DNA from: Rhizobium sophorae
GTDB taxonomy: Bacteria > Pseudomonadota > Alphaproteobacteria > Rhizobiales > Rhizobiaceae
DNA length: 62,057 nucleotides
Assembly: GCF_013087515.1 (NCBI RefSeq)
Contig: NZ_JABFCN010000004.1
Location: 1 to 62,057, forward strand
Reading direction: 5' to 3'
The notes beneath the pieces are model-generated. The model did no database searches. It had not been told where the DNA came from and worked only from the letters and a program-made list of their open reading frames with translations. Position 1 is the stretch's first letter. Each line of letters opens with the position of its first letter. The position numbers and the translations under genes are program-made. Of this stretch, positions 45,632 through 62,001 are shown piece by piece.

Positions 45632-45954
45632 ATGGCGGCATCTGCCGCGAAATCAAAGAAAAAGAGCATTACGCCATCCAAGGCATCATGCTCTCTCACG
45701 TCTTTCACAAAGCCAGAAAAGGCTACCGATCAGAATGGTAATAGGGAGTTCATTTGTAAACTGAGAGAGAGAAAGATCGGTATTTCAGAAGCTTATCTTC
45801 CTTCAATTTGCCCCGATGTGACATCTTGTAAATTTGTGTCCGATTTTGGGGGATTTTTCGGCTTTTAGTTTACAAAAATGAACGGCGACTGAAAAAGCCC
45901 CTTGGATTGGGCGGCAAACGGCATAGGGCCTGGTTGCACTTGACGAGCGACCAG
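45632..45954. other. Gene-poor junction between core chromosome and island
   Basis: This 323-base stretch follows the MarC stop directly. It holds a hairpin (AGAGCAT at 45663-45669 with ATGCTCT at 45688-45694) that may end the marC transcript, then an A/T-rich segment, then the end of the minus-strand operon. A 78-codon plus-strand frame starting at 45632 has no family resemblance and I do not call it. No tRNA or obvious attachment-site duplication was seen. Confidence 0.5.
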
Positions 45955-46977
45955 TCAGGCGGAAATCAGTTCCGCATACTCCGTCATCGGGCCGATATCG
46001 AGAAACTCCGGCTGCAGTGCTGACCGCGGTCGGCGGGTCGCCCGGAGTACGATGCGAACTTCCCGCTGGTAGGAGTAGCCGAAGTGCTTCGACATTTCGT
46101 GCACCTTCACCTTTGTGTAGTCCCGGTACGGGTCGAAGTAGGTTACCGGGCCATAGTCAGGTTCCCAATCGGCCCATCGCGCCAGGAAGCTGGAGATAAT
46201 ACGCTGCGCAAAGAAGTCCGGGTTTCTTATCACGAGCGCGGCGTCAGAGCCGAAGTCAGTAGGCATCCGATAGTAGATGTGATCGCACAGGCTGAACAGA
46301 AAGTAGTCTGGCGCTATGATCGGCATGACGATGTCGTCGTCACCGAAGACGACGCGGTGCCCTTGGAAGTCGATGTGATGGATGCCCTTTAGTCGCTCCC
46401 GAAACGTCGGGATGTAAAAGGTCCGATGGATCTCGTCGTCCTTGATGGCTGCGTTGTGCGAACCGTCGTTGTAGTAGCTTGCCGGACAGATTCTCAGGTG
46501 TCCCGTCCGCAGCATCGGCTCGAGGAACTCCCTACGGCCGTATTTCACGACGAACGACGAGGTCGGCGCCGAAAATCCAGCGAACATCCTCACACCGATC
46601 GGCTCCCCGTTCTCGAAGTATGCAAGCAGCGGCTTTCTGGCTTCGCCTATCACATCAGTGGGGATGCCGATCCGCGTAGCATACTCCTCGAGCAGATGCG
46701 TGTAGGTGACCATGAAGCCGTTGGACGAGCCAACAGGAAGGAGCCCGATTTGACCAATGCCTGTCAATTCCATCGCATTGATAAAGACGTCGCGGAACCG
46801 CTGGGCGACGCGTTCGTCAGGTGCCCCGATGAGATATGGAAACGAGAGGTATTCCTGCCGCCAGAACTCGTGACGGCGCAGGCTTCCTCCATTCGATTTC
46901 GCCTGAGCCGCATAAGCCTCGAACCGTTCTTCCACCTGATTGAGGCGATCGCGTAGAACATCGACGGAAACGGTCAA
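45955..46977 (-). CDS. DUF2971-like protein, last gene of the TIR/SLOG/RelA operon
   Basis: A 340-residue protein starting at TTG (46977), five bases after the stop of the alarmone-synthetase gene and preceded by GGGGG, so it is probably translationally coupled. The middle and end (FLEPMLRTGHLRICPASYYNDGSHN ... DDEIHRTFYIP ... HFGYSYQREVRIVLRAT) resemble DUF2971 proteins, whose function is unknown and which are often found in defence islands. The first 130 residues are a separate helical region. There is no signal peptide or membrane helix. Its co-transcription suggests a role in the same system, as accessory, immunity or effector factor. The family assignment is tentative. Confidence 0.6.
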   Translation of the reverse strand: MTVSVDVLRDRLNQVEERFEAYAAQAKSNGGSLRRHEFWRQEYLSFPYLIGAPDERVAQRFRDVFINAMELTGIGQIGLLPVGSSNGFMVTYTHLLEEYATRIGIPTDVIGEARKPLLAYFENGEPIGVRMFAGFSAPTSSFVVKYGRREFLEPMLRTGHLRICPASYYNDGSHNAAIKDDEIHRTFYIPTFRERLKGIHHIDFQGHRVVFGDDDIVMPIIAPDYFLFSLCDHIYYRMPTDFGSDAALVIRNPDFFAQRIISSFLARWADWEPDYGPVTYFDPYRDYTKVKVHEMSKHFGYSYQREVRIVLRATRRPRSALQPEFLDIGPMTEYAELISA

Positions 46978-46979
46978 GA

Positions 46980-49900
46980 TCAGCCCCCTTCTCGGTTGCC
47001 ATCCGCGTCGTCGTCGAGATTGTCGAACTCGAGCTTGCGGAGGGCGCTTTGCGCATCGGCCCGTCTCTTTTCTGATTGGATGCGTCGATCGATATCCGCG
47101 ATCTGCCGTCGCGCAAATCCGGAGATGCGCACGTCGCCATCCTCCAGCCACGGCTCGATAAGTGCCTTCTTCATTCTGAGGCTTTCGACGAATCCGAACT
47201 CCCCATGGACGACGCCGGTGTTCTCGAGACTTCTGGAAACGCCGGCTCTCACCCCCTCGTCGTCCGGGAGTTTAAGAAGGAGAGCCTTCAGAACCGAGTG
47301 CGTCGAGGTTTCTCCGTGATAGTTCTGCATAACGCTAAGGATGAACTTCGCGTCCTTGACCGTTCCGGCATCAATGAGGGCGACGAGCGCGGCTGCAAAT
47401 TCTGGCGGGCATCCGGAGAAGATCGAGGCAAGCACGCGACCGCCGCGATAACCAAACAACGAGGAGTCCTCCTCGAACCAACCGCGGGCTTTCGCCACCG
47501 CCAAGCGGGCGTCCGAGGATAGAGACGCGGCAAGAAGCTGGAACCGATGGGGCACGGCTTCGTAGCGGACGTCGTCGCCACCCTCGCTTGGATGTTGGAG
47601 GCGACGACCAAGGAAGTCCCAAACCAGCTCCAAGTAGGGTTCCGCGACGAAGGAAAGAATTCGCTCGCCATTCCAGGGAATTTCCGGGAATTCGACAAGA
47701 CTCTCAAGGATTAGGCTTGCGTCAATGGCTTCGAAGGTCTCGAAGAACGGTGTCTTTTCTGGCAGCCACGCCAGATTGATCCAACGTGCATCTTTGACAG
47801 CGATTAGATGGCGGAGTGCGGGGCGCACCAGCTCGTCGTTCGAGGGAACGTTTTCTGGATAATTTCGCATGGCGAAGAGCAGACACTCCGCGATTGCATG
47901 CCGGTCATCGTCTTCGATCGCCCGGTTCAGTAGGACCTTCAAAGTTTCCGGATCGTTGGGCGACGATCCGCGCCAATGGACCGCGATCGATAGCAGATGA
48001 CCGGGCCTTGCGAGGAACTCGTCTAGCGATTGTTTATACGCCGCGTGATCGCCGCTTTTGATGAGGCCGTTCAGAAAGCCCGGCAGAAAACGCAAAAGAT
48101 CGTCGTTGCCGTTGGCAAGCAGGAACTTTGCGACCGAAGGCTGGTTCTCCGAAAGCTTCACGATGAACTGCCCGAGCTTCGGGAAAGTCGCCATGTCGTC
48201 CGACCTGGTAGCGGCGCAGCGTTCCAAGAACTCCAGCCAGGTAGAGCGGGAGAGATCGTCGACCTCGTCGAGAAAAGCCTCGATCTGGCTGTCTCGGTAC
48301 GCGTCCACTTTCGCGTGGTCGAACCCCCGGTCTTCCCACTGCTGTGGCATGACGCCTTCGAAACCAACCAGGATTTTGTACCGAACGAAGGTCTGGTCCG
48401 TGTTGAATCTGTCGCGCAAAGCGAGAATCGCTTCCGCGAGCTGGGATGCTTGATGAAGACAACCCATCGCAGCGCCCTTGGTTCCCAGCAGCTCCGTCGT
48501 TCGGTAGTACGCGTAAAGCGCGTTGTGCTCGATCGTCTCGCGCAGCTCGTACGAAATCTGTTCAGCGCGGCTGGTATAGAAGCTAATGATCGCTGCGTGG
48601 TCGATCAGCACCTGGCGAAGGAAGTCGCCGCTCGGTCCGCTGCGGGAAGCGGTTCTCGTCGCATTGTCCAGAGCATGGAATACCAGTCGCCGCTCGCGGT
48701 CGTCGACTGCGGTCTCGAACAACTCGAAAAGCGCTGTCATCGCCGTCTGCCGGAGTTCGTATACCGTTGCAACCGGCACCTCTCCAGCTTGCCAGGAGAC
48801 GGCGTCCGCGCTCCATTCCGTACCGGTGGCTTCCGCGTCGAGCAGTTCCTTCCATGTCTCGACGATCAATGGGCGAGTTTCGGTAGAACAGTCTTTCTGT
48901 CGCTTGATCAGCTTCGCTAGCCGGCGCTGTACGTCCGGTCCGACCTGTTCCCAAACCTGAAGATTGTACTGGGCCAGATGTCCGACGGCATCGAGGATCT
49001 TCGTTCGAATCCTTTCCTCGGCCTCGCCCACGAATATCCTCTGAAGTGCTAGATAGACCTCTTCGACCGCGGTGTAGCGATACCGATCGATCACCTCAAC
49101 GACCTTCTCTGCAATCTCCTCGGCCGCGTGACCGTCAAAGGTTGAGAACGGCGTCTCGATCGGCTTCGTAGTCGTCGCTCTCGCGGCTTCAACCGCGCCT
49201 ACCAGAACCTCGACAACCTCGGGAAATACGGAGGGCACATCGTCGTATAGAGGTAGGAGGTCGTCGGAAAGCGACGATACGAGATCGAAGCGCTCGTTGT
49301 TGTCGGCGGCAGCCTTCAAGGATTCGAGAAGGTTCTGATCGAAGAGCTGTTTGCCCGCGACAAGGCGCTCGTAGTCCTGCTGCACACGCTGGAATTCATA
49401 TCCCGCGGGCATGAGGTACCTGTCCATGATACGGTCGAAACGCTTCCTGATCTGATCAAGCGCCTCGTTGCCAAATCCTTCCCGGTCATCGATCTTGTAG
49501 ATGATATCGTGAGAGGTCTCCGCCCAGGCGTGGATTAGGATCGTCTGGATCTGTATTTCGCAACGGAGACCGGCAAAGTCGCGGTACTCTGGCAGTACGG
49601 CGCGCGCTTCATTCAATGACACGGTATAGTGGACGGCCTGATATCGGACTTGTCCGTTTTCCTCTACTGGATGATGGATCTTCGTTGCATCGCGGTCGAC
49701 GTCGAAGTTGTCGAACACGATGCTTGAGTTCAGGAACCGGTCGACGTCGTTATTCGTATAGAAGATGATGCGCACGCCGGCGAGATCGCGACGGACCACT
49801 GCGACGTCCGCGTCCAGATTTCCGGTTTCCTGCATTCGTTTATGAAGACTCTCGGGAGTCTTGGCGCGCGCTTGTATCGATTGCGGCTTGGGAAGATCGC

Positions 49901-49997
49901 CCGCAGCGGCGATCGAGCGCTCGAGCAGATGGGCCACAGTGTCTGCGAAGGCCTGGTAGACAGCGAAGTAGAAGCGCTCGTAGTCTTGGAGGTTCAT
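46980..49997 (-). CDS. RelA/SpoT-type alarmone synthetase fused to a large helical region
   Basis: A 1005-residue protein. Residues 1-200 form a RelA/SpoT synthetase domain with the key motifs in order: ARAKTPESLHKRM (RxKxxxS), DLAGVRIIFY (metal Asp71), RYQAVHYTV (Tyr119, His123) and CEIQIQTILIHAWAETSHD (Glu148). All look catalytically intact. There is no HD hydrolase domain, TGS or ACT domain. Residues 200-1000 are mostly helical, perhaps HEAT-like repeats. It would make (p)ppGpp or a related pyrophosphorylated nucleotide from ATP, which is toxic without a hydrolase. It is fifth in an operon with three TIR proteins and a SLOG protein, so I infer a regulated growth-arrest effector; the helical part may be the sensor or inhibitory region. 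Confidence 0.85.
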   Translation of the reverse strand: MNLQDYERFYFAVYQAFADTVAHLLERSIAAAGDLPKPQSIQARAKTPESLHKRMQETGNLDADVAVVRRDLAGVRIIFYTNNDVDRFLNSSIVFDNFDVDRDATKIHHPVEENGQVRYQAVHYTVSLNEARAVLPEYRDFAGLRCEIQIQTILIHAWAETSHDIIYKIDDREGFGNEALDQIRKRFDRIMDRYLMPAGYEFQRVQQDYERLVAGKQLFDQNLLESLKAAADNNERFDLVSSLSDDLLPLYDDVPSVFPEVVEVLVGAVEAARATTTKPIETPFSTFDGHAAEEIAEKVVEVIDRYRYTAVEEVYLALQRIFVGEAEERIRTKILDAVGHLAQYNLQVWEQVGPDVQRRLAKLIKRQKDCSTETRPLIVETWKELLDAEATGTEWSADAVSWQAGEVPVATVYELRQTAMTALFELFETAVDDRERRLVFHALDNATRTASRSGPSGDFLRQVLIDHAAIISFYTSRAEQISYELRETIEHNALYAYYRTTELLGTKGAAMGCLHQASQLAEAILALRDRFNTDQTFVRYKILVGFEGVMPQQWEDRGFDHAKVDAYRDSQIEAFLDEVDDLSRSTWLEFLERCAATRSDDMATFPKLGQFIVKLSENQPSVAKFLLANGNDDLLRFLPGFLNGLIKSGDHAAYKQSLDEFLARPGHLLSIAVHWRGSSPNDPETLKVLLNRAIEDDDRHAIAECLLFAMRNYPENVPSNDELVRPALRHLIAVKDARWINLAWLPEKTPFFETFEAIDASLILESLVEFPEIPWNGERILSFVAEPYLELVWDFLGRRLQHPSEGGDDVRYEAVPHRFQLLAASLSSDARLAVAKARGWFEEDSSLFGYRGGRVLASIFSGCPPEFAAALVALIDAGTVKDAKFILSVMQNYHGETSTHSVLKALLLKLPDDEGVRAGVSRSLENTGVVHGEFGFVESLRMKKALIEPWLEDGDVRISGFARRQIADIDRRIQSEKRRADAQSALRKLEFDNLDDDADGNREGG

Positions 49998-50049
49998 CGA
50001 GTGGAGCTTTTTTCAGCTACGAACATATCTATTTCTGCGCGACCCGTGT

Positions 50050-50700
50050 CTAGTTGTTGCGCCGCCAGTACCGATCCTCCGCCGTCGCAGGCTGTTCCTC
50101 CGGAACGCGATACCGCTCCTCCTTAACGGAAATGTCGAGGTGCTCGTGGAAGAGCGCGACGTAGTCTCGGTTGAGTTCGAAATCCGAGGAGACGTCGCCC
50201 ATGATTTTGGCGACTTCCAAGGAAGCACCGCCCGTCGAAGTGACGGGGATAACCTTCGCGTCCGGCTGCAGCTTTTTGAACATCTCGTACTCGGCAACGA
50301 TGCCGCCCATTCCGCCGATGAATACGGCGGCCTTGAACTGAGTCTCGGTGAACATGCGTTCGCGCATCAGGCTCAGACTCGCGTCCCGGTCCCCTCCGAG
50401 GTTTGCGGTGAACACGACGTTGTGAAAGCGCTTGTTATCTTCCGGGAATTCGTCCTTGAACACTTCAGATTGATACAGTGTGACCCATTCGCCGTAGTCG
50501 ACGCTCATGTCCTCGGACATTACAAGGATCATCGGGGTAATAGCTGGATGCCCGCCCCAGACCAGCGGCCGCCGTCCCAAGGTGACATAGGCAAGTGCCG
50601 AGACTGCGGAGGTGATCGCAACGGTGTCTGCTGTTTCCGCGTAGGCAGGGCCGCGCTTAGGGTCAGGAACTCCTGCCGATAGGAAGATAGCTTCAGCCAT
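50050..50700 (-). CDS. Stand-alone SLOG-superfamily ligand-sensor protein
   Basis: A 216-residue Rossmann-like protein. The sequence IFLSAGVPDPKRGPAYAETADT, the strand-loop LVWGGHPAITPMI (about 46-58) and the second glycine loop FIGGMGGIVAEYEMF (about 127-141) are the hallmarks of the SLOG family, whose members bind nucleotide-derived signals, as in the Thoeris protein ThsA. No effector domain is fused to it. The ATG lies two bases after the stop of the preceding TIR gene. In this operon it is the natural candidate to bind a signal made by the TIR proteins and pass it on to the downstream synthetase. The family assignment is by motif; the role is inference. Confidence 0.75.
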   Translation of the reverse strand: MAEAIFLSAGVPDPKRGPAYAETADTVAITSAVSALAYVTLGRRPLVWGGHPAITPMILVMSEDMSVDYGEWVTLYQSEVFKDEFPEDNKRFHNVVFTANLGGDRDASLSLMRERMFTETQFKAAVFIGGMGGIVAEYEMFKKLQPDAKVIPVTSTGGASLEVAKIMGDVSSDFELNRDYVALFHEHLDISVKEERYRVPEEQPATAEDRYWRRNN

Positions 50701-50702
50701 GA

Positions 50703-51863
50703 TCAATCGTCCATCCCTGCCAAGGCCCAGCCGGCCTCCGATACCCGGATCGCCTTCACCGCCTTGATCTGCTCGTCCAACCACGCGAGATGCTGAATCC
50801 AAGTATCACGAATTCCTACGTGATCGTAAACCAGAATCGGGGTCTCCCCCTGATTGGCCTTTCTGGCCTTGGTGGCGACATCGTTCAGGGTCTCGGCAGA
50901 AGGAATCCCAACGATCGGATAGGCCCAGACCAACCGTTCGTTCAGCAGGCGCACGGCGATCGCTCGATGAGCCCCAATCGCCTCGATCGACGCTCCGATC
51001 TTCTCGACGTCGGCCCTGAGCTTTCCGGTTATCGACATGTACCGCGCCGCGATGCTCATGCTTCGCAGTCGTTCCACACGCAAAACAATGGATTCGGCGG
51101 TAGCATCTGCGATCGGGCCGTCCTGCCCAAGAAGCTCTTCCGGATCGAGGTAGACCGTCTCGGACATATCCGTCAGTCGGGTCGGGGTGTGCTCGGGCCA
51201 TATAACGCGAATGACCTGAATTTCCTTCGCTCGAGCTCGGCCAATCTCCTGGCGTGTCCATCGGCTTTCGAAGTAGGTCGGTGTGTCGAGCATGACCACC
51301 ACGTCGGAATCAACGAGGCGATGCCAGAGCACGTCTTGAAACGGGTCACCGGGGCGAATGTCATGCGTGTCTAGGAAGACGTCGAAGCCGCGCGAATTGA
51401 GAAGATCGTGGAGCTGCAAGGCGGCCGCCCGCGACTCCGTTCGTCGGTAGCTAACGAACACTCGGCGCTGCGGACGCAAAAGCCCTACGCACTCCAGCAC
51501 GGCGGAGGACAATTCGGTCAGATTGGCATCGTCGGGCCGACGCTTGAGACCATTAGCAAACTGCAGGGGCTTCGGGATTAGGGCGCCAAAGTCTTCCGTA
51601 TGTCCAACGGTCGGGATTATCGGCATGCTGGCGGCGACCAGTTCCTGCGCCTCAGCGAGATCGGGATGTCCCGCACTTCCGAAATATATCGCTGCGAACG
51701 CATTGCGCCGGTCGCGGCCACCGACGGACTGGCCATCGTGGATCAGAACACCCTCTCCGACCGACAGATCGAAGTCGGCGATCATCTCTCCGATGGTTGT
51801 GGCGAGCCTGGCACGTTCTTCACCAGTCGGCTGCCCTAATATCGCTAGTTCGTAGAGGCTCAT
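50703..51863 (-). CDS. TIR-domain protein with N- and C-terminal extra domains
   Basis: A 386-residue protein. A TIR domain occupies about residues 133-235 (RRVFVSYRRTESRAAALQLH ... GFDVFLDTHDIRPGD ... VVVMLDTPTYFESRWTRQEIG) with the expected catalytic glutamate, Glu206, of TIR NADases. Residues 1-130 are a separate alpha/beta domain (YELAILGQPTGEERARLATTI ... IYFGSAGHPDLAEAQELV). Residues 260-386 form another predicted Rossmann-like region (RLVWAYPIVGIPSAETLNDV ... TPILVYDHVGIRDTWIQHL). The ATG overlaps the preceding stop by four bases. It may make or sense an NAD-derived signal; the flanking domains are unlike Thoeris ThsB and are unassigned. Confidence 0.8.
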   Translation of the reverse strand: MSLYELAILGQPTGEERARLATTIGEMIADFDLSVGEGVLIHDGQSVGGRDRRNAFAAIYFGSAGHPDLAEAQELVAASMPIIPTVGHTEDFGALIPKPLQFANGLKRRPDDANLTELSSAVLECVGLLRPQRRVFVSYRRTESRAAALQLHDLLNSRGFDVFLDTHDIRPGDPFQDVLWHRLVDSDVVVMLDTPTYFESRWTRQEIGRARAKEIQVIRVIWPEHTPTRLTDMSETVYLDPEELLGQDGPIADATAESIVLRVERLRSMSIAARYMSITGKLRADVEKIGASIEAIGAHRAIAVRLLNERLVWAYPIVGIPSAETLNDVATKARKANQGETPILVYDHVGIRDTWIQHLAWLDEQIKAVKAIRVSEAGWALAGMDD

Positions 51864-52462
51864 CGGCTGACAAGCCCTGCGGCTGTCTCGATCCAGCCGC
51901 CGATGTTCTTGTGACCGTTCTGCTGCGCATAGTCGTAGCTTAGGCAATGCTGCGAGAGCTGCACGACGGTAGTGGACGTCGGCGGGTCGAACCAGAGGTC
52001 GCCTTTACGGATCGCAAGTGTGTAGTCGGCGTATTTCACCCACTTGTCGTCCTTCCATTCCGCGAGATAGATCCCTGCGTCGGTCTTGTAGACGCCCATC
52101 TGTGCAAGGGGGTCCGCACCCTTCGTCGAAGTGTTGCCGTTCTTATCCTTGACACCATGGACATGCACGGTGAGTAGGCCGTTGCCCTTGATAACGCTCC
52201 GCGCGATCTCGTAGCGTACCCATCGCCGCTGCCAAGTGTTCGTTCCGGTAAGGACGCAGGTCACCGAAGTATTCTCGAGTCCTTTCCGAAGAAAGCTCTT
52301 CAGCGTGTCGTCGTTCTCGCGCTTCGACGCTTCGAAGACGCTGCTGTCGAAGAAGCCGACGTCGATCTGATCTGCGGGTGCGACCACCCAGGAATTGCGG
52401 GCGATCCACGCGCGCCAGACATCTGGAGTGTAATGAAAGGAAAAAAATGTTCGTCGCGCCAT
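51860..52462 (-). CDS. ThsB-type TIR protein (DUF1863/TIR-like)
   Basis: A 200-residue protein. The start MARRTFFSFHYTPDVWRAWI and the block SVTCVLTGTNTWQRRWVRYEI are diagnostic of the DUF1863 TIR-like family that includes Thoeris ThsB. The catalytic glutamate of this family is probably Glu85 (RRWVRYEI). ThsB proteins detect phage and convert NAD to a cyclic ADP-ribose isomer that activates ThsA. No ThsA (SIR2 plus SLOG) is encoded here. GGAAAG lies upstream of the ATG; the gene is 52 bases after the previous TIR gene and overlaps the next by four bases. Confidence 0.85.
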   Translation of the reverse strand: MARRTFFSFHYTPDVWRAWIARNSWVVAPADQIDVGFFDSSVFEASKRENDDTLKSFLRKGLENTSVTCVLTGTNTWQRRWVRYEIARSVIKGNGLLTVHVHGVKDKNGNTSTKGADPLAQMGVYKTDAGIYLAEWKDDKWVKYADYTLAIRKGDLWFDPPTSTTVVQLSQHCLSYDYAQQNGHKNIGGWIETAAGLVSR

Positions 52463-52514
52463 CGGCTACTTTCCATTTCCAAAGTTGACAATCACGGCGA
52501 TTGAAGCGAACCCG

Positions 52515-53030
52515 TCAAGGCACCTGGTTTCCGCTCAAGCGATGTCCATTTCCGGCTGCGTCGAAGTGGCCGATACCCCCTGACTGCGTGTCATTGAGAT
52601 GACGGTAGAGCTGTAGGTACTCGTTTCCGTGGGTGACGCCGCGGCTGTCCCTAGTTTGAATGACCAGGATTCGGTTCAAATCCTTCACGCCGTCGGCGTA
52701 ACCGATCTCCCAAGGGCACCAGCGGCTAGCCATCGAGTTTTGGGTGGCGAGGAAGAAAAACATCTCCAGGTCGCGAATTTTTCCCTGGATCTTCTCGGCG
52801 GTCCGGCGATCAGGACGCTCGGGCATCGTATGGTCCTCCCAGTCGATGTAGACCTCCCAGCCCTTTCGATGGAGATAACCCTGCAGACCCTTTGCGAGAT
52901 CGGCGTCCACATGGCTGTGGCATAGGAAGGCGGTTCGCTTGTTTTCCCTCCTCCCGTCGCTCGCGGATTTTCTGACAGTTGAATAGCTTGCTGAACTTCG
53001 TATGTCGCTCTGATCAATCGCCATTGCCAT
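52515..53030 (-). CDS. TIR-domain protein, first gene of the six-gene operon
   Basis: A 171-residue protein: a 30-residue basic leader, then a TIR_2-type domain (KRTAFLCHSHVDADLAKGLQGYL ... GWEVYIDWEDHTMP ... FFFLATQNSMASRWCPWEIGYADG). Glu108 in RWCPWEIG is the expected NADase glutamate. GGAGG lies five bases before the ATG. It heads the minus-strand operon, with its promoter in the 550-base gap shared with the divergent MazG operon. Multiple TIR genes with one signal receiver are known in Thoeris loci, where each TIR recognises different phages; the same logic may apply here. Confidence 0.85.
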   Translation of the reverse strand: MAMAIDQSDIRSSASYSTVRKSASDGRRENKRTAFLCHSHVDADLAKGLQGYLHRKGWEVYIDWEDHTMPERPDRRTAEKIQGKIRDLEMFFFLATQNSMASRWCPWEIGYADGVKDLNRILVIQTRDSRGVTHGNEYLQLYRHLNDTQSGGIGHFDAAGNGHRLSGNQVP

Positions 53031-53580
53031 TCACCCCTCCAAGTGGAGTGTTATTTGCCTGATTCTCAACCGCTAATCGAGTCCAGGACTGCGATCTCGG
53101 AGCCGACGCCGCGCCTCGGCCTAATCACTCGGAAAAAAGTGGTCACGGTCTGCGTCCGGATGACGGCGGCAGCAGCGCCGGGAGTGCACCGGGGCGAGCG
53201 CCAAGGCAGAACGACCAAGGAGTTGCGCGTCGCCGCGGTGAAGCCGAGCGCACGCGCTGCGGGCCGGAACAGCCTGCTTATCGTCCATCCAACCCGAAGC
53301 TGCACCCCCTCGATGAATTAGCCTAGCCATAAGTAGATTCATTTCTTTTAGGAAGGCAGAACGCTGCGATATGCGCGGAGGTAATCGCGAAAGATCGGGA
53401 TTATGTCGCGTATACTCTTTGGGCTACACGCTGCTCGGGAGGTGAAAGACGAAGGACCTGGAGCTGGCATCCGTGACAGATTTCAGCACTGCAAACGTCA
53501 TGACTGTGGACCAATTCGCGCCTGGAGCTTGAAGACGAAGGGGACTCAGTGTCTTCTGCAGACAACTTGCAGGAGAATTC
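53031..53580. other. Divergent intergenic region of two island operons
   Basis: These 550 bases separate the TIR operon (minus) from the MazG-like operon (plus) and must hold both promoters. A TATACT at 53411-53416 is a possible plus-strand -10 element but has no convincing -35. Frames of 70-93 codons on both strands (for example 53043-53321) have no family resemblance or ribosome site and are not called. Confidence 0.4.
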
Positions 53581-53946
53581 ATGTCAGGGAACTCATTTCA
53601 GGAACGGGTCTGGCAATGGATCGCTGCATGCTTCCCGCCCCAGGCCCATGCGGATGTAAAGGAGCGGACACACCGCTTTCTTGAGGAAGCACTGGAGCTT
53701 GCCCAGGCGAACGGATGCTCCAGGCAGGATGCGCAGGATCTCGTCGACTACGTTTATGGCCGCGCGCCGGGAGAGCTCGCCCAGGAGACCGGCGGCACGC
53801 TCGTGACGCTGGCTGCGCTCTGCAACGCGAACGGCATAGACATGGAGGAGGCAGGGCAGCGCGAACTGGATCGGAACTGGGCCAGAATCGACAGGATTCG
53901 GGCGAAGCAGGCCGCCAGGCCACAAGGTTCGGCACTGCCGCAATGA
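53581..53946 (+). CDS. MazG-like NTP pyrophosphohydrolase
   Basis: A 121-residue all-alpha protein. The motif TGGTLVTLAALCNANGIDMEEAGQRELDRNW and the upstream EEALELAQANG carry the acidic EExxE-like and ELxD signatures of the MazG/dUTPase-like superfamily, which hydrolyse (d)NTPs to monophosphates. AGGAGA precedes the ATG. It overlaps the next gene by four bases (ATGA) and begins a three-gene operon. It may limit a nucleotide pool; a link to the nearby nucleotide-modification genes is speculation. Confidence 0.75.
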   Translation: MSGNSFQERVWQWIAACFPPQAHADVKERTHRFLEEALELAQANGCSRQDAQDLVDYVYGRAPGELAQETGGTLVTLAALCNANGIDMEEAGQRELDRNWARIDRIRAKQAARPQGSALPQ

Positions 53947-54347
53947 AGTTTCATCCCGCTCAGCAGCGTGCACAAGCCTCAAGGCTCATTGTCAAAGTCG
54001 CGGACAGTAGCGAGAATCGTATGCAGATTTCCTACGATACCGCAGACCTGAAGCGATGCTGTCAGAAGCGCGAGGTAGCCGAAGAACGCTTCGGTCGGAC
54101 CTACGCCGACCGCCTGGTTTCGGAAATCGCGGACGCCGAGGCATTCGACTACGTCGACGAGTGGCACCAGATTCTTGGGGGTAACGTGACGACCTTTGCT
54201 GACAATTCCTTTCAAGTGGTGATCGGTTCGAGCTACATGGCGACCTTCGTCAGCGTGGACGAGAACGCAGCCTTCGACGTGAATGGACGGATCGTCTGGG
54301 CGAGTGTTGAATACATTAAGTTGATGTCCATATCGGAAGTACAATGA
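53943..54347 (+). CDS. HigB-like putative toxin
   Basis: A 134-residue protein. After a 25-residue N-terminal extension the sequence MQISYDTADLKRCCQKREVAEERFG, the following helix (LVSEIADAEAFDYVDEW) and the final beta strand region resemble RelE/HigB-type mRNA interferases. Its product is small and the gene overlaps the next gene by four bases; that gene encodes an HTH protein of the HigA type, the expected antitoxin partner. I infer a toxin-antitoxin pair. The match is by overall pattern, not by a strict motif. Confidence 0.5.
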   Translation: MKFHPAQQRAQASRLIVKVADSSENRMQISYDTADLKRCCQKREVAEERFGRTYADRLVSEIADAEAFDYVDEWHQILGGNVTTFADNSFQVVIGSSYMATFVSVDENAAFDVNGRIVWASVEYIKLMSISEVQ

Positions 54348-55444
54348 TCGAAGAGCACGCAACAGCGAATTGGTTTTCGAAGCCAGGCGACTCGATACGG
54401 GCGATCATGCAGCGCCGCGAGATCGGCGCGCACGATCTCGCGCAGTGCTTCCGTGACGGCATCGAGACGGTTAGGACACTGCTCGACGGATCGCGCCGTA
54501 TCGACGAAGAGACCGCGAACACTCTGTCCGAGGCGCTGGGCGCATCACCGAAGTTCTGGCTGAAGCGTCAAGAAAATTTCGAAGCGGCCGTCCATCGCGC
54601 GGTCATCCAGATTCAAGAAAGTGGGCTCGAGGACGTCCTGCTGCGCCTCCCTGCGCCTGGACGCAAAGCCGGCGGGAGACTGTCGGCCGAGAGGCGCATT
54701 GAAGAAATCCGTAAGCGGCTTGTGTTCTATAATGTTCCGAACGCGGAATCATGGACCGCTCGTTACGGCCGGCTCGTCGGTGAGACCGACTACCGGACGT
54801 CGAAAACCTTCGTTGCGAAGGAAGACGCCACGCTGCTGTGGCTGAGACGCGGCGAGCTCGAGGCCGACATGGTCCAGACGCGGGTCTGGAATGCGGGAAA
54901 CCTTCTGGATCGGCTCGAGGCGATCCGAAAGCTTTCGATGATCAGGCATCCCGAGGCTTTCCTGCCGAAGCTTCGCACCCTGTGTGCCGAGGCTGGGGTG
55001 GCCCTCGTCATCGTCAAGGCGCCCGAAGGGTGTCGGGCAAGCGGCGCGATCAGGATGGTCGACCCCGACAAAGCCATGCTTCTTCTCAGCTTCAGGTACA
55101 AACGAGATGACCAGTTCTGGTTCACCGTTTTTCATGAAATGGGACATCTCGTCCTCCATAAGGCGGACACGTTCGTCGATGACGACGCCGTTCCTAGCGA
55201 CGCCGACCGGGAACAGGAGGCCAACGAGTTCGCGGCCGAATGTATCATCCCACCGCTGAGGGAATCAGAGTTCGAGCGGGTTCCTCCGAAAAGGGACGAC
55301 ATCCTTCGGTTCAGCGTGTCGATCGGCATCGGCGCGGGCCTCACGGTCGGGCAGATGCAGCATCGCGGAATGCTAGGACCGGACAAGCTGAACTACCTGA
55401 AGAGAACTTGGGATTGGGCTCAGATCAACCCGGTCCGGGTCTAG
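54344..55444 (+). CDS. HTH regulator with ImmA/IrrE-type metallopeptidase domain
   Basis: A 366-residue protein. Residues 15-75 are a HigA/XRE-like helix-turn-helix (GDSIRAIMQRREIGAHDLAQC ... GASPKFWLKRQENFE). The C-terminal half is an ImmA/IrrE peptidase with the zinc motif His264-Glu265-x-x-His268 (FHEMGHLVLHK) and the downstream glutamate in REQEANEFAAECIIP. Such fused proteins act as antitoxins or phage-repressor-cleaving regulators. It overlaps the HigB-like gene (ATGA). It converges on the gene ending at 55441 with a four-base overlap of their 3' ends. Confidence 0.85.
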   Translation: MIEEHATANWFSKPGDSIRAIMQRREIGAHDLAQCFRDGIETVRTLLDGSRRIDEETANTLSEALGASPKFWLKRQENFEAAVHRAVIQIQESGLEDVLLRLPAPGRKAGGRLSAERRIEEIRKRLVFYNVPNAESWTARYGRLVGETDYRTSKTFVAKEDATLLWLRRGELEADMVQTRVWNAGNLLDRLEAIRKLSMIRHPEAFLPKLRTLCAEAGVALVIVKAPEGCRASGAIRMVDPDKAMLLLSFRYKRDDQFWFTVFHEMGHLVLHKADTFVDDDAVPSDADREQEANEFAAECIIPPLRESEFERVPPKRDDILRFSVSIGIGAGLTVGQMQHRGMLGPDKLNYLKRTWDWAQINPVRV

Positions 55445-56358
55445 CCCTTGTAGTGGACGAAGGACGAAGGACTTTTCTGCCAGTTGCAGAGCGCGTCCTC
55501 CATAACCGCCATTCCGACGTGGAGGCTGGCGTCCAGCTCGTCGAGCCAGCTCTGTAGCTGAGTTTCGATCGCGACGCCCTGAACCGAACCCGTGAAAAGC
55601 AGTCGCGCTCCGGACGCCGGCCCGGTCGCTCCTTTCAGATACGCCGAACCCGCCTCGATCGGGGCAATTCCGTATCGGCCGATCATTGCCAAGTAGTCGA
55701 ACTTCGCCAGTCGACCGAACGTCGAAACCTTCATGCTCCGATACAGCGCGTCGAATATCTGCGTGGGATCGTTCCCCGTCTGCTGGACCATGTTGGCGAA
55801 GAACGACCGATGGCCGTCTTCACCGATCCATGCGAGATAGCTATTCAGAACGCTGCCGAAATTGCGGTTTGAATCCGGACGAAGGCTTTCGTACTTTCGA
55901 TGGTTACCGAACTTTCCGCCGACGTTTGTCCAGTTCTCTGCAAGCCACGCTATCATTTGGTCGGGATCCGAGCTCACAGTCACCCAATCCCATGTGCCTT
56001 GCCCCAGCCGGCCATAGACTTGCGTGAGACGGAGCCAACCAGTCGATGCCGGCCGGGCGAAATGGGTCATGAGGAAGACCAGCCAGGCGGCCTCCTCGAC
56101 GTCGCCATTCTGGAGATGGTACGCCACCGCCCGCTCCGGATCGAAGGCGCCCGAATTCGGATCGGCCTTGGCGGCGCCGATGTGCTTTTCCTGGACCCGG
56201 CGATAGTAATCCTCGCGCCGCAGGCTGGCGACGAACTGCATCGCCAGAGTGCTGCGGCTATCGTCATCTGCTACGCCTGGCAGGTCGCGAACGGTCTGGG
56301 AATGCGTTTGGAGCGCCTGCCGGATCTCGTCCCATCTACCGGTTCTTGTCGGCCACAT
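55441..56358 (-). CDS. Putative alpha-glutamyl/putrescinyl-thymine pyrophosphorylase clade 3-like protein
   Basis: A 305-residue protein. From memory, segments such as GKFGNHRKYESL, STFGRLAKFDYLAMIGRYGI and GSAYLKGATGPASGARLLF match the aGPT-PPlase clade 3 family, which has a DNA-glycosylase-like fold and was proposed to work in DNA base hypermodification. The ATG at 56358 has GGAG upstream and overlaps the thymidylate-synthase-like gene by 23 bases, so they are co-expressed; an ATG at 56391 is an alternative. I infer that the two proteins make or attach a modified pyrimidine. The family call is moderate and the function unproven. Confidence 0.5.
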   Translation of the reverse strand: MWPTRTGRWDEIRQALQTHSQTVRDLPGVADDDSRSTLAMQFVASLRREDYYRRVQEKHIGAAKADPNSGAFDPERAVAYHLQNGDVEEAAWLVFLMTHFARPASTGWLRLTQVYGRLGQGTWDWVTVSSDPDQMIAWLAENWTNVGGKFGNHRKYESLRPDSNRNFGSVLNSYLAWIGEDGHRSFFANMVQQTGNDPTQIFDALYRSMKVSTFGRLAKFDYLAMIGRYGIAPIEAGSAYLKGATGPASGARLLFTGSVQGVAIETQLQSWLDELDASLHVGMAVMEDALCNWQKSPSSFVHYKG

Positions 56359-57355
56359 CGCAATCTTCTCCAGAAGTCTTTTTGCCTGCATTTCTTATCA
56401 GTCGAATCTTGCGGCGCCGTTCAAGAAAGGTCCGGTAAACCTCGTGGTGGAATTCGCCCTTAAGTGCGTCGAGATCTTCGAAACCTGGCGCGTCCTCCTT
56501 CTTCGTCGCCCAAAACACCTGCAGCAGCCGCACGATATCAGCCCAGTACGGGTCGTCGAACACCTTCACGGCTTCAATCGTGATTCCGCTCCGCAGTTCG
56601 GCTTCCGCGTCCATCAGGCGGCCGGTCAGCGGAAACGGATCGCCGCCCGGCATCGGCGGCATCTCAATCGTCTTTTGATGGCCCTCGTGAATGTAGCGCT
56701 TCATCGCCTCCATGGACTCATCATAGACGTGCATACTCGCCGCGTAGTGGAGATAGTTCCCGAGTTCGACGCCCAGCCGCGAAGCCATCATTTCCTGTAG
56801 CATGGTGAAGCAGAACACGTCGTGCGGGAGTCCTTTGTAAGCGTCGTTTGAGCGCATCGTCACGGACATGTGGAGCCGTCCTTCTCGGATCAAAAACTGT
56901 AGCGCCGTCGTGCAGGGTATCTCCTTGTGGTAAACATCATTGTCCGCGGCGTCGTAGAGTTGGATTACAGCCCGCTTGGACGGCTGGTTCTTTCGCAACA
57001 GGGCAGTGACGTTCTCCAACTGGTTGATGCTACCGCGCATGGCGTGGATCCTCGGGCCGTAGGCGCCGGCGAGGACACCATTCTCCGCGTCATCGGCGTA
57101 GTCCGGAATGTAAGCCTTAATAAAATCGAGCGTGTTGAGACCGGCGAGGTACCATAGAAGCTCGCCGAGCGCACTGAAAGGCTTGCCTCGGTCCTGGGAT
57201 CGGCTGATCCGTGCTCGCGGATTGGTAATCCGGAAGAAGACGCCAAGCTTCTCCTTCATGTCGCCGCGGGTTCCTGTGTTCACGGCTCCTTCGGCATCGA
57301 GCGCTTTGTACAGCTCGATCATGATCTCATCTATGCCCTCGCCCTCAAGCAACAT
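56336..57355 (-). CDS. Thymidylate-synthase-superfamily protein, possibly dCMP-type
   Basis: A 339-residue protein. The catalytic Cys148 lies in EIPCTTALQFLI, the phosphate/nucleotide site in MRSNDAYKG (Arg168, Asp171), and the His/Tyr pair in MHVYDE (His209, Tyr211). The position equivalent to E. coli Asn177, which selects dUMP, is Asp179 (GLPHDVF); dCMP hydroxymethylases carry Asp here. It has no dihydrofolate-reductase partner nearby and is longer than ThyA. GGAG precedes the ATG. With the overlapping pyrophosphorylase-like gene it suggests pyrimidine-nucleotide modification. Loss of the normal PCH motif (PCT here) is also atypical. Confidence 0.8.
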   Translation of the reverse strand: MLLEGEGIDEIMIELYKALDAEGAVNTGTRGDMKEKLGVFFRITNPRARISRSQDRGKPFSALGELLWYLAGLNTLDFIKAYIPDYADDAENGVLAGAYGPRIHAMRGSINQLENVTALLRKNQPSKRAVIQLYDAADNDVYHKEIPCTTALQFLIREGRLHMSVTMRSNDAYKGLPHDVFCFTMLQEMMASRLGVELGNYLHYAASMHVYDESMEAMKRYIHEGHQKTIEMPPMPGGDPFPLTGRLMDAEAELRSGITIEAVKVFDDPYWADIVRLLQVFWATKKEDAPGFEDLDALKGEFHHEVYRTFLERRRKIRLIRNAGKKTSGEDCDVADKNR

Positions 57356-57625
57356 TCAGCGCTCCGAATCTTAGCAGGATCGCATCTTATGCGATGCACC
57401 GTTGAATGGAACTGCTACCTTAGCTTGTTCGGGCCTTTTGTATCGTTCGACGGGGTGCCTTCTCGTGCGAGGCAGTGCCAGGCGAAGTCATGTCATTAAG
57501 CCGAAGCGGACAGATCTTCCCGCGTTGCGCCCCCCCAGGGATTCGAAGCACTGCGGCGGACTGATCTGATCCGCCACAGCACCGTCAATGAAGCGGATCG
57601 CCGAAATCGTTTACATAGATCGATT

Positions 57626-59494
57626 TCATGCCTTCAGAACTGACTCACGCCGCAATTCCAATTTCCGGTCGACGACGAGTTCCGCAGCCATCCTCATCAA
57701 CTGAGCCTTCTCCCTGCTCAGGATTTCCTTCGCCGCTCGATATTCACGCGCCAGGATCGAGCTGATTTCCGCATGAGCTTCGGTCGGCGCTATGAACAAG
57801 GCGTCGATCTTGTTCCTGTCTGCATGGAATCGAAGGCTCTTGCCCATCCCGTAGGATAGCACCAGTTTCGTCGCGATCTGGGTGGCGGTGTCGAGGTCCG
57901 AGCCCGCTATGCCGGCGCCGCCGATCGAGCGAGATCCTTGGACGACTTCCTCCGCAGCCATCCCGGCGAGCGAGATACGAATCCTTGCAAGCAACGTCGC
58001 TTCGGTAGGCAGGATCTCCTCTGTCATATGGTAGTGAGTCCTTCCTCCCTCCTGCATGTCTGGTCCCTCTCCCAGGACGCTATCCTCCAGCTCGACGACA
58101 ATTTCATGGGCCAGCTTGCTAGCAAGGGCGACAAGCGCGTGACCGCATTCATGAACCGCCATCCTAAGAACGATGGATTCAGGCAGTTGCCTTCTGACAG
58201 GAAGGCTGGCCCTCACGTCGTCGAGGGTCGGTGCCCGCCCGTTGCTTCGCGCGGTCCGCTTTGCTCTCCGGGCAAGCTTCCGAAGATCGGCCGGCGTCGC
58301 AGCTCGGAGGCGGTCGGTGACCTTACGGATTTGCGCGACATCGATCCCGTTGGATAGATGATGTCGGAGGATTGCCGCTCGCTCTTCCTCGTTGGGAGGG
58401 TCGATATGGACATGTTCCTCCAATCGTCCAGATCGAAGGACGGCGGGGTCGACGTCCTCCAGGCGGTTCGTGGCACCGATGAGGATCACGCCCTTCATGT
58501 CGACGAGCCCGTCGGTCAGTTCCAGAAAGCAGTTCACCACGTTGGATTCATAATAGGCATTCTTCCCTCCTGAACCTCGTCGTCCTATTCCATCCAGTTC
58601 GTCAACGAAGAGAATGGCGCATCCCTTGGAGCGCGCCTCCGCAAAGGATCCCCTCATCGCCTTGAGCATGTCCCCGAGATGTCCCTCCCCGCTGCCCTGC
58701 CATGCCGCGACCGACGTCGCGACGAGAGGAACTCCTAGCTCCGCGGCCAAAGCCTCAGCAAAAAGGGTTTTGCCGACCCCCGGAGGACCGATGAGGACGG
58801 CGCCATGATCAACGTCACTCCACTCCAAAGCGTTGGCGTTCCAATCTTTCAAATCGCGTTTCAGTGCAGTCACCCAAGGCCAAGCCGAAGCGAAGCCCGG
58901 CAAGTCACTGAGTTTCTGCCTCGAGGTTAGATTAATCCTTGCCTGTAGTGCCTCTGCGAGTTCATCGCTGGAAAACGATTGGCGCCCGGCGAAGGATTCG
59001 ACGACTCCGAGATCCGCCTGGGAAAGTCTCCAGACGAGATCGGTAGGGAGCGAAGAAAGGCCGGCGAGACGTCGCCCCGCAGCAATCTGACGTGGGGTCG
59101 GGTTCGAGGCATAGACGATGACGTCCGCGGCCTGCCGTACCGATGGAGGGACGATGTCGAACGAAGTAGAAAGGATGATCAACTGGTGATGAGCACCCAG
59201 GGTATCGACCCAGCCGGGCCCCAATTTCCTGGTGGACGGTTCCAGAACCCGGACAGTGCGTCGCGACGCGTCATTGTGAAAGAGCGCCCGTCGATCTCCC
59301 CGCATTAGGAGTTCGGCGGCCTTCACATATCGATTGATCCATCTGGCATCTACGATGACGATGATGATCCCGCGGGTGTTTCCCCTGAACTGACCGAACG
59401 GGCGCAATGTCGCCCGCAGTGAGCTGTGAGCAAGAAAATAGCCGAGGTTACGGCGGAGTTCTTTGAAAGCGGCACGCGACATATGATGTTTCAT
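57626..59494 (-). CDS. Soluble FtsH-like AAA ATPase with M41 metallopeptidase domain
   Basis: A 622-residue protein. The AAA module has Walker A GPPGVGKT (236-243), Walker B CAILFVDELDGIGRR and the second-region motif GATNRLEDVDPAVLRSGR. The peptidase has the zinc motif His448-Glu449-x-x-His452 (VHECGHALV) and a downstream aspartate in GSDLDTATQIATKLV. There is no transmembrane segment, unlike FtsH, so it is probably cytosolic. The first 220 residues are an unrelated N-terminal domain. AGGAGG lies eight bases before the ATG, which overlaps the stop of the DUF6634-like gene. It may be an ATP-driven protease acting on a protein delivered by its small partner. Confidence 0.85.
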   Translation of the reverse strand: MKHHMSRAAFKELRRNLGYFLAHSSLRATLRPFGQFRGNTRGIIIVIVDARWINRYVKAAELLMRGDRRALFHNDASRRTVRVLEPSTRKLGPGWVDTLGAHHQLIILSTSFDIVPPSVRQAADVIVYASNPTPRQIAAGRRLAGLSSLPTDLVWRLSQADLGVVESFAGRQSFSSDELAEALQARINLTSRQKLSDLPGFASAWPWVTALKRDLKDWNANALEWSDVDHGAVLIGPPGVGKTLFAEALAAELGVPLVATSVAAWQGSGEGHLGDMLKAMRGSFAEARSKGCAILFVDELDGIGRRGSGGKNAYYESNVVNCFLELTDGLVDMKGVILIGATNRLEDVDPAVLRSGRLEEHVHIDPPNEEERAAILRHHLSNGIDVAQIRKVTDRLRAATPADLRKLARRAKRTARSNGRAPTLDDVRASLPVRRQLPESIVLRMAVHECGHALVALASKLAHEIVVELEDSVLGEGPDMQEGGRTHYHMTEEILPTEATLLARIRISLAGMAAEEVVQGSRSIGGAGIAGSDLDTATQIATKLVLSYGMGKSLRFHADRNKIDALFIAPTEAHAEISSILAREYRAAKEILSREKAQLMRMAAELVVDRKLELRRESVLKA

Positions 59495-59883
59495 GCGTCG
59501 AGCCTCCTGTCCAGCGACGCGTTCGCCAGTCGGTACCACCGGTTCAGCGTTCTGACGAAAGACTGTCCGTCTTCTTCGAAATAAGCGAAGACTTCGCTTG
59601 TCAGGATGACGTCGCCGTCATGCAGGACGGGATGTCCGAAAACGATTCCTTCCAGGCAGGGCGCCTCTCTTGCGGACCAGCGGAATCGCTCGAGCGATGG
59701 CAGATCCTCACCAAGGTCACTTGCTCGAAGGTTATTTGCCTTCAAGCGCCGAAGGTCGTCGGCCAGGCTCTCCAGTCCGTCGATGTCCGCCAGCAGTCTT
59801 GCGTGCATGATTCGATTTTCCATTAAAAGGCGTTGCGAAAGGATTCGTGACCGCATCCGAATGGAAGCCGTGTGCTTCTTCAT
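59491..59883 (-). CDS. DUF6634-like small protein, partner of the AAA/M41 protein
   Basis: A 130-residue protein. The first half is helical and basic (RSRILSQRLLMENRIMHARLL ... LESLADDLRRLK). The second half has the pattern LEGIVFGHPVLHDGDVILTSEV ... RTLNRWYRL that I associate with DUF6634, a rhizobial family of unknown function. GAGG precedes the ATG and the gene overlaps the AAA/M41 gene by four bases. Its role may be to regulate or deliver substrates to the ATPase. The family name is from memory. Confidence 0.6.
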   Translation of the reverse strand: MKKHTASIRMRSRILSQRLLMENRIMHARLLADIDGLESLADDLRRLKANNLRASDLGEDLPSLERFRWSAREAPCLEGIVFGHPVLHDGDVILTSEVFAYFEEDGQSFVRTLNRWYRLANASLDRRLDA

Positions 59884-59982
59884 GGACGCCTCAGGCTTCC
59901 GTTGTGACGCCCATCGTATCCGGCGTCAAGATCCTGCACCTGCCGAATTGCCCGCCGCAGGCATCCATGCGAATGAATCCTT

Positions 59983-61713: not shown

Positions 61714-61898
61714 TGTAGCGGACATCTGACGCGCCCGAGGGGGCAACCGCGAATCCGCCCGTCCGCTTGCGCTCTACAATGACCGCTTTGGGCCGGAAGC
61801 CGTCCATGGCTCAAATGCGCTAGAAGCCGCACGGCATGGGCGTGCTGGTCTAGGGCTCCTGCGCCTAATACATGGCCCACGTGGATCGGCTCGCTCGA

Positions 61899-62001
61899 TC
61901 ACGACTCAAAGAAGACGAACCGATTGGGGTATACTTCGGTCTTCCCATCGCAAGTAATCGTAATGTGATAGATATCGGCGTCCCTGATCGTTACGGTCTG
62001 T
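61899..62001 (-). pseudogene. C-terminal fragment of an unidentified gene, possibly interrupted by an IS
   Basis: Read on the minus strand, the bases before the stop at 61899 give a well-behaved protein tail (TVTIRDADIYHITITCDGKT, then EVYPNRFVFFES). The frame runs unbroken to the window end, but the upstream part (through 62057) is made of the repeats listed next, which resemble an IS terminus. Either a gene was cut by an IS, leaving only this tail, or the whole is one coding region continuing outside the window. Confidence 0.35.

What the first reader, a model, noticed from the sequence alone, without database searches (positions are those of the whole stretch)
45955..53030. Six-gene TIR-TIR-TIR-SLOG-RelA/SpoT-DUF2971 operon: candidate new nucleotide-signalling defence system
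Seen: six minus-strand genes, with overlaps or gaps of at most 52 bases, encode a TIR_2 protein, a ThsB/DUF1863-type TIR protein, a third TIR with extra domains, a stand-alone SLOG protein, a 1005-residue protein with an intact RelA/SpoT synthetase domain, and a DUF2971-like protein. Known: in Thoeris, ThsB TIR proteins make a cyclic ADP-ribose isomer that binds the SLOG domain of ThsA and activates its SIR2 NADase. Inference: here the SLOG receiver is separate, no SIR2 is present, and the lethal output may be a (p)ppGpp-type nucleotide made by the synthetase. I know of no named system with this gene set.
Basis: partly seen in the sequence, partly recalled or inferred. Interest (0 to 1): 0.95.

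Follow-up and report, generated by a model that had tools for sequence, protein, structure and literature searches.

The report
Known phage defence beside unrelated genes
This is not a new six-gene system: it holds a four-gene cassette matching an already named phage-defence type (type III Thoeris), predicted to signal with NAD-derived molecules, lying beside two genes that were not found next to it at any other locus examined, one of which is likely a separate, uncatalogued immune-type enzyme.

Summary
The six minus-strand genes are real and tightly packed; TIR, SLOG and RelA/SpoT domains are confirmed. They are not one new system. NCBIfam names the SLOG protein ThcA (260 bits, cut-off 110) and the third TIR protein ThcB4 (476.9 bits, cut-off 220) of type III Thoeris. 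With the two smaller TIR genes they form a cassette that recurs without the other two genes; L102 has the identical four-gene order. The 1005-residue RelA/SpoT protein is a separate gene: 0 of 67 other loci with relatives carry ThcA, ThcB4, the small TIRs or the sixth gene, 0 of 22 ThcA loci carry it, and in samples of 394 family genomes only this genome has both. The sixth protein is not DUF2971 by Pfam (0 of 51 relatives) and stands apart too (0 of 3 loci). Chromosomal homology with 8 of 8 sibling genomes stops at or before 45738, so this is an island. The lead worth keeping is the RelA/SpoT protein: its helical solenoid recurs with a PIN_12 gene, an added hydrolase domain, or a STAND-like front.

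The parts
52515..53030 (-). TIR1, 171 aa TIR_2 protein; accessory (ThcB-type) TIR of the type III Thoeris cassette
   Evidence: Pfam TIR_2 43.6 bits; PADLOC ThsB PDLC00419 211 bits; E108 in 13 of 13 aligned sequences; TIR1-like gene in 12 of 18 ThcA loci, some matches weak
51860..52462 (-). TIR2, 200 aa ThsB/DUF1863-type TIR, predicted cyclic-ADP-ribose-type signal maker
   Evidence: Pfam ThsB_TIR 84.2 bits; PADLOC ThsB 187.9 bits; solved relatives ThsB1 9b7d E 8.8e-38 and 6lhy 8.9e-38; E85 in 18 of 18 aligned sequences; TIR2-like gene in 15 of 18 ThcA loci
50703..51863 (-). TIR3 = ThcB4, 386 aa, TIR domain with N- and C-terminal extensions
   Evidence: NCBIfam NF058526 Thoeris_type3_ThcB4 476.9 bits, cut-off 220; E206 in 18 of 19 aligned sequences; next to ThcA in 21 of 22 loci; start
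50050..50700 (-). ThcA, 216 aa stand-alone SLOG (LD_cluster3)
   Evidence: NCBIfam NF058525 Thoeris_type3_ThcA 260 bits, cut-off 110; Pfam LD_cluster3 248.1 bits; GGMxG...E motif (G129 G130 M131 G133 E137) in at least 97% of 120 listed relatives
46980..49997 (-). RelA/SpoT synthetase head (about residues 1-215) plus alpha-helical solenoid (about 223-991); separate gene, not part of the Thoeris cassette
   Evidence: Pfam RelA_SpoT 50 bits, cut-off 27; model pLDDT 88.1; Foldseek 6fgj small alarmone synthetase TM 0.59 by target length, and HEAT/ARM proteins; 0 of 67 relatives' loci carry cassette genes
45955..46977 (-).
   Evidence: 296 relatives, no Pfam family in 51 sequences apart from chance matches at E 0.3 and weaker; model pLDDT 89.7, no PDB match at E <= 0.001; 0 of 3 relatives' loci carry RelA/SpoT, TIR or SLOG genes
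45739..62057 (.). strain-specific island downstream of gyrA (41910-44747) and marC (44864-45631), running to the contig end
   Evidence: blastn: homology with 8 of 8 sibling loci ends at 45738 (5), 45695 (2) or 45629 (1)

Best explanation
The six genes are a four-gene type III Thoeris cassette (three TIR proteins and the stand-alone SLOG protein ThcA) lying next to two genes of separate families, and the cassette would likely stop phage-infected cells through an NAD-derived signal made by its small TIR proteins. Proposed steps, all inferred: phage infection activates TIR1 and/or TIR2; they turn NAD+ into an ADP-ribose-type signal (TIR2 is a ThsB1 relative); ThcA binds the signal with its SLOG pocket; signal-bound ThcA switches on its inseparable neighbour ThcB4, whose TIR domain then depletes NAD+. 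Shown here: family membership of ThcA and ThcB4, retained TIR glutamates, the fixed ThcB4-ThcA pair with variable extra TIRs, and the lack of any link to the RelA/SpoT gene. The RelA/SpoT-solenoid protein is a separate gene: an intact (p)ppGpp-synthetase-type head on a solenoid that, in relatives, is also found with other partner domains; it is likely an independent sensor-toxin of the CapRel kind in working, not in family.
For: ThcA and ThcB4 equivalogs well over cut-off, and in 4 of 4 relatives of each. ThcB4 next to ThcA in 21 of 22 loci, the exception being an 80-aa ThcA fragment (L081); RelA/SpoT 0 of 22, sixth gene 0 of 22. L102 has TIR1-TIR2-ThcB4-ThcA in the same order and nothing co-directional behind ThcA within 1.6 kb. 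L101 is 82.8% identical over window 50060-51877, so DNA similarity ends at the ThcA end. The best plasmid DNA match covers window 52462-50090 (TIR2 to ThcA) and stops there; no record of 32 covers 80% of the six genes (15 of 32 records shown). RelA/SpoT: 0 of 67 loci with cassette genes and no conserved neighbour in 65 loci by all-against-all BLAST. Co-occurrence: ThcA 6 of 394, RelA/SpoT 2 of 394 family genomes, both only here; 0 of 4 of those ThcA genomes has RelA/SpoT. TIR2-ThsB1; TIR glutamates 13/13, 18/18, 18/19.
Against: In this genome the six genes are head-to-tail with gaps of at most 52 bp and could be one transcript; no terminator stands out between ThcA and the RelA/SpoT gene. Loci examined are 22 ThcA (15 of 29 plasmid records plus 7 genome loci, some cut by contig ends) and 67 RelA/SpoT (37 of the 65 genome-contig loci reach 19 kb), so a rare shared arrangement could be missed; the nearest RelA/SpoT relatives (66-68% identity, P0001-P0003) are metagenomic and their surroundings could not be read. 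Which protein kills is a guess: the ThcA name and its conserved GGMxG...E motif would also fit ThcA as the effector. No primary paper on type III Thoeris was found in the library, so its mechanism was not checked against print.
Confidence: 0.8

Rival explanations
1. All six genes work as one system: TIR-made signal binds ThcA, and the RelA/SpoT protein makes the lethal nucleotide.
For: Order, strand and gaps of at most 52 bp; intact synthetase core.
Against: 0 of 67 RelA/SpoT loci and 0 of 22 ThcA loci show the pairing; both genes together only in this genome among samples of 394; complete four-gene cassette without it in L102.
Confidence: 0.06
2. Within the cassette ThcA, not ThcB4, is the executioner: a LOG-like nucleotide hydrolase switched on by the TIR signal.
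For: ThcA bears a conserved glycine-rich GGMxG...E motif (19 of 19 and at least 97% of 120) that recalls the LOG hydrolase motif (recalled, not tested); the A letter follows ThsA, the effector of other Thoeris types (convention recalled).
Against: ThcB4 keeps its TIR glutamate in 18 of 19 and never leaves ThcA's side in complete loci, which an effector that works alone would not need.
Confidence: 0.35
3. The RelA/SpoT-solenoid gene and the 340-residue gene form their own two-gene system.
For: Only 2 bp apart here, likely translationally coupled.
Against: Sixth-gene relatives in 0 of 67 RelA/SpoT loci, RelA/SpoT relatives in 0 of 3 sixth-gene loci.
Confidence: 0.08
4. The RelA/SpoT-solenoid protein is an ordinary alarmone regulator with no immune role.
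For: It has a normal synthetase core, and no phage-defence library names it above a meaningful score. The genome's other RelA_SpoT gene (C8, 756-aa frame) would cover housekeeping, which leaves this one free for any role.
Against: Patchy and mobile (2 of 394 family genomes); its solenoid is shared with a PIN_12 gene pair, a hydrolase fusion and a STAND-like protein; its neighbours match more PADLOC families than a control set (96 against 25; crude).
Confidence: 0.2

Closest known systems
Type III Thoeris (NCBIfam NF058525 ThcA, NF058526 ThcB4)
   Same: Both defining proteins score over twice the curated cut-off; ThcB4 directly upstream of ThcA; extra TIR genes beside them.
   Different: No difference found in the cassette. 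It merely has two further genes downstream in this genome.
Type I Thoeris (ThsA SIR2-SLOG + ThsB)
   Same: TIR2 is close in sequence to ThsB1; a SLOG domain is the presumed signal receiver.
   Different: SLOG stands alone, no SIR2 in any of the six proteins.
Type II Thoeris (TM-macro ThsA + ThsB)
   Same: TIR proteins next to a presumed ADP-ribose-type receiver.
   Different: No macro domain in any of the six proteins.
CapRel / toxSAS (fused RelA/SpoT toxin-antitoxins)
   Same: One ORF with an N-terminal RelA/SpoT synthetase head and a C-terminal region that could sense and hold it off (CapRel passages seen in PMC9712102).
   Different: The C-terminal part is a long alpha-helical solenoid of about 770 residues; relation to the CapRel antitoxin domain was not found, activity unknown.
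Olokun OloA
   Same: Weak PADLOC match of the solenoid (23.9 bits, E 5.5e-6; 28 bits in the PIN_12 partner of L076).
   Different: Far below a family-level score; no OloB model matched the PIN_12 proteins.

Membership tests
Type III Thoeris | ThcA over the curated cut-off | tested here: met
   260 bits, cut-off 110
Type III Thoeris | ThcB4 over the curated cut-off | tested here: met
   476.9 bits, cut-off 220
Type III Thoeris | ThcB4 and ThcA adjacent, with further TIR genes | tested here: met
   2-bp gap, two more TIR genes upstream; same pair in 21 of 22 loci
Type III Thoeris | phage defence and NAD-derived signal | not testable with these tools
   needs phage challenge and mass spectrometry
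Type I Thoeris | ThsA with SIR2 and SLOG | tested here: not met
   no SIR2 match in the six proteins
Type II Thoeris | ThsA with macro domain | tested here: not met
   no macro match in the six proteins
One six-gene system | RelA/SpoT and sixth gene co-conserved with the TIR/SLOG genes | tested here: not met
   0 of 67, 0 of 22, 0 of 3 loci
RelA/SpoT synthetase | PF04607 over cut-off with catalytic residues | tested here: met
   50 bits, cut-off 27; D71 and E147 in 69 of 69; small alarmone synthetases are the best solved relatives
toxSAS / CapRel | toxic or tRNA-pyrophosphorylating activity held off by a C-terminal antitoxin region | not testable with these tools
   the C-terminal region is a solenoid in the model; activity needs a bench assay
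DUF2971 | Pfam match over cut-off | tested here: not met
   none for the protein, none for 51 sequences at E up to 10
ADP-ribosyltransferase fold (sixth protein) | structural match | tested here: inconclusive
Olokun | OloA with OloB partner | tested here: inconclusive
   OloA 23.9 bits only

The most novel reading that the evidence does not exclude
The RelA/SpoT-solenoid protein founds an uncatalogued family of immune proteins in which one conserved helical solenoid senses infection and is paired with interchangeable killing partners: a RelA/SpoT head here, RelA/SpoT plus a poly-gamma-glutamate-hydrolase tail in other rhizobia, a PIN_12 nuclease as a separate upstream gene in Legionella and Pseudanabaena plasmids, and an EAD10/STAND-like ATPase front in a cyanobacterial plasmid.
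Probability: 0.45. Interest if true: 0.62.

Novelty: new member of a known kind. Interest (0 to 1): 0.35.

Why it matters
It shows how a defence island can mimic an operon: a complete, named cassette ends at ThcA, and the two genes behind it are separate arrivals. For type III Thoeris it adds a clear four-gene example and the observation that ThcB4-ThcA is the fixed pair while the other TIRs vary. The RelA/SpoT-solenoid protein, if it is a sensor-toxin with exchangeable partners, would widen the set of phage-triggered alarmone-synthetase toxins well beyond the small toxSAS proteins and is directly testable as a single gene.

Tried and rejected
Rejected: a nameless system (named by NCBIfam); RelA/SpoT as Thoeris output; DUF2971; phage or prophage origin of the genes (viral contigs gave no relative of ThcA or of the RelA/SpoT protein; phages only one partial synthetase match).

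Led nowhere: Foldseek and VIA-align on the sixth protein (low scores, two ART-fold rows only a hint; other folds not excluded); promoter/terminator scan; paper searches for ThcA, ThcB and type III Thoeris, which gave one paper with the phrase 'Thoeris type III' (PMC12390725, one passage seen: phage gene TadIII said to protect from it). A 2015 comparative study of SLOG and nucleotide systems, recalled, is not held. Passages, not whole papers, were seen of PMC12948488, PMC13232231, PMC12847820, PMC11204291 and PMC9712102. The other search listings were seen as listings only.

Weak controls told: the PADLOC neighbour count (96 families for 145 ORFs from 37 of 65 loci; 25 families for 139 ORFs of 15 arbitrary stretches) counts models, not proteins; 17 of the 25 control models are type I methyltransferases, one protein each, probably the same one; the control comes from this order and class and is not matched by taxon. 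Rows not used: 14 of 29 ThcA plasmid records were not fetched, several of them near-identical to fetched ones; only the first 120 hits of each protein search are listed by the tool.
Full report
What is there. Window 45955-53030 carries six minus-strand genes. In transcription order they are TIR1 (171 aa), TIR2 (200 aa), TIR3 (386 aa from ATG 51863), a SLOG protein (216 aa from ATG 50700), a 1005-aa RelA/SpoT protein and a 340-aa protein (TTG 46977). Gaps are 52, -4, 2, 52 and 2 bp. Pfam confirms TIR, SLOG (LD_cluster3) and RelA_SpoT. It does not support DUF2971 for the last protein: no match up to E 0.1 and none in 51 sequences at E up to 10.

The TIR/SLOG part has a name. NCBIfam release 20 calls the SLOG protein Thoeris_type3_ThcA (260 bits, cut-off 110) and TIR3 Thoeris_type3_ThcB4 (476.9 bits, cut-off 220). 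Four ThcA and four ThcB4 relatives from L072, L074, L090 and L102 also exceed the cut-offs. TIR1 and TIR2 have no NCBIfam name of their own, but PADLOC files both, and TIR3, as ThsB, and TIR2's best solved relatives are ThsB1 (9b7d, E 8.8e-38) and 6lhy. The glutamates that would be catalytic in TIR NADases (role recalled) are kept: TIR1 E108 13 of 13, TIR2 E85 18 of 18, ThcB4 E206 18 of 19 aligned sequences.

The cassette is four genes long. I collected 22 ThcA loci: 15 of the 29 plasmid records (L068-L074, L084-L091) and seven genome loci (L079-L081, L101-L104). Flanks are about 6-9 kb, shorter where contigs or plasmids end. In the first 18, ThcB4 is present in 17 (the exception, L081, holds only an 80-aa ThcA fragment), TIR2-like genes in 15 and TIR1-like genes in 12, while RelA/SpoT and the sixth gene are in 0. 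In the other four, ThcB4 is in 4, RelA/SpoT and the sixth gene in 0. L102 has TIR1-TIR2-ThcB4-ThcA in the window's order, then a gene on the other strand. L101 is 82.8% identical to window 50060-51877, so similarity runs to the ThcA end and no further. Of 32 plasmid records with DNA similarity to the six-gene stretch none covers 80% of it; the best covers window 52462-50090, TIR2 to ThcA (15 of 32 shown).

The RelA/SpoT gene is a separate one. A scan of one genome per species gave 65 loci with relatives; with two plasmid loci that makes 67. None carries ThcA, ThcB4, TIR1, TIR2 or the sixth gene at E 1e-3 by profile. No other protein family recurs beside it in more than 5 of 65 loci. Many of these loci are cut by contig ends; 37 of 65 reach 19 kb. 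Among samples of 394 family genomes ThcA occurs in 6 (one a fragment) and the RelA/SpoT protein in 2; only this genome has both, and the four other ThcA genomes asked lack it. In the genus sample it is in 2 of 100, one a 33% partial match. The sixth gene likewise stands apart in 3 of 3 loci with relatives (L100, L129, L130).

The island. The window is a whole contig. DNA similarity to eight sibling genomes of the genus ends at 45738 in five, 45695 in two and 45629 in one, just past marC, and does not resume in the flanks fetched (about 9-17 kb). So 45739-62057 is an island of this strain, and its genes can have been brought together by chance or by selection for defence. That accounts for the operon look.

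How the cassette most likely works (inferred). Small TIRs sense phage and make an ADP-ribose-type signal from NAD+, ThcA's SLOG fold binds it, and the fixed partner ThcB4 executes by TIR NADase activity. The fixed pair is shown; the signal, receiver and executioner steps are not. ThcA itself as executioner is the main alternative (GGMxG...E motif in at least 97% of 120 relatives). For comparison, passages in PMC12847820 describe signals of type I, II and IV Thoeris; nothing on the working of type III was found in the library, only a mention of a phage counter-protein (PMC12390725).

What the RelA/SpoT protein likely is. The model (pLDDT 88.1, pTM 0.68) has a synthetase head and a helical solenoid from about residue 223 to 991. 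Foldseek finds small alarmone synthetase 6fgj for the head (TM 0.59 by target length) and HEAT/ARM proteins for the rest, with low TM-scores. Core residues are invariant in 69 of 69, but where S. aureus synthetase has EIQIRT (alignment) this family has Q in 57 and H in 12 of 69, never R, which may mean another substrate. The solenoid is shared: residues 306-991 match an 802-aa protein of a Pseudanabaena plasmid (25% identity, E 4e-61), and a related one in Legionella adelaidensis. Both follow a PIN_12 gene by 2 bp (53.7 and 89.5 bits, cut-off 32). L014, L024 and L077 add a C-terminal poly-gamma-glutamate hydrolase domain (166.7, 172 and 153 bits across the three, cut-off 22). A 1206-aa Aulosira protein ends in a stretch like residues 792-964 (23% identity, E 3e-8) behind EAD10 and AAA/STAND matches that all lie below Pfam's cut-offs. 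Such partner exchange, patchy occurrence and neighbours rich in PADLOC families (96 models against 25 in a crude control) suggest an immune role. It resembles CapRel in layout only (passages of PMC9712102). PADLOC gives just weak matches, PDC-S33 36 bits over the head and OloA 23.9 bits, and NCBIfam 20.2 bits against a cut-off of 320.

Verdict. The gene list is right apart from the DUF2971 label and start codons; the six-gene system is not. The core is a member of a catalogued system. The RelA/SpoT-solenoid family is the part I would follow up.

Noticed in passing
window 55441-57355 (-): An alpha-glutamyl/putrescinyl-thymine pyrophosphorylase clade 3 protein (PF18746 397.7 bits, also ADDT 248.5 bits) overlaps a thymidylate-synthase-family gene (87.3 bits): a possible thymine-hypermodification pair in a bacterial island.
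   Followed up: partly
window 54344-55441 (+) with small ORFs at 53581 and 53937: M78-peptidase protein with a HigA-like start; PADLOC PD-Lambda-2_B 77 bits. The companion ORFs were not identified.
   Followed up: partly
window 57626-59539 (-): AAA ATPase fused to an M41 peptidase, FtsH-like, matching IetA models up to 75.8 bits.
   Followed up: no
L074, L086, L089 (and L087 4100-5716): Type III Thoeris clusters of Enterobacter, Cupriavidus and Pantoea plasmids enclose a gene annotated as CBASS cGAMP-activated phospholipase; L087 (Serratia) has an unannotated gene of the same length there. A possible extra effector of this branch.
   Followed up: no
L085 2630-5523, L086 7845-10738: Beside ThcB4-ThcA in Beijerinckia and Cupriavidus lies the same four-gene set: TIR, hypothetical, NTP pyrophosphohydrolase-family, uracil-DNA glycosylase.
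   Followed up: no
window 46980-49997, residue 151: The synthetase motif EIQIRT reads EIQ(I/V)(Q/H)T in this family: Q in 57, H in 12, R in 0 of 69.
   Followed up: partly
L075 3658-7079, L076 3616-7067: PIN_12 gene followed after 2 bp by a gene for a protein homologous to the RelA/SpoT protein's solenoid.
   Followed up: partly
L131 1682-5302: 1206-aa protein with weak EAD10 and AAA/STAND matches in front and a C-terminal stretch like the solenoid's end.
   Followed up: partly
own genome G000, contigs C48, C49, C59 and C34: Twelve TIR_2 matches in this genome, 11 over the cut-off, nine of the twelve on C48 and C59.
   Followed up: no
G187:C10:58968-59165 (L081): An 80-aa ThcA remnant (85% identity over the last third) in a genome of the same genus, with no TIR gene nearby by profile.
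   Followed up: no
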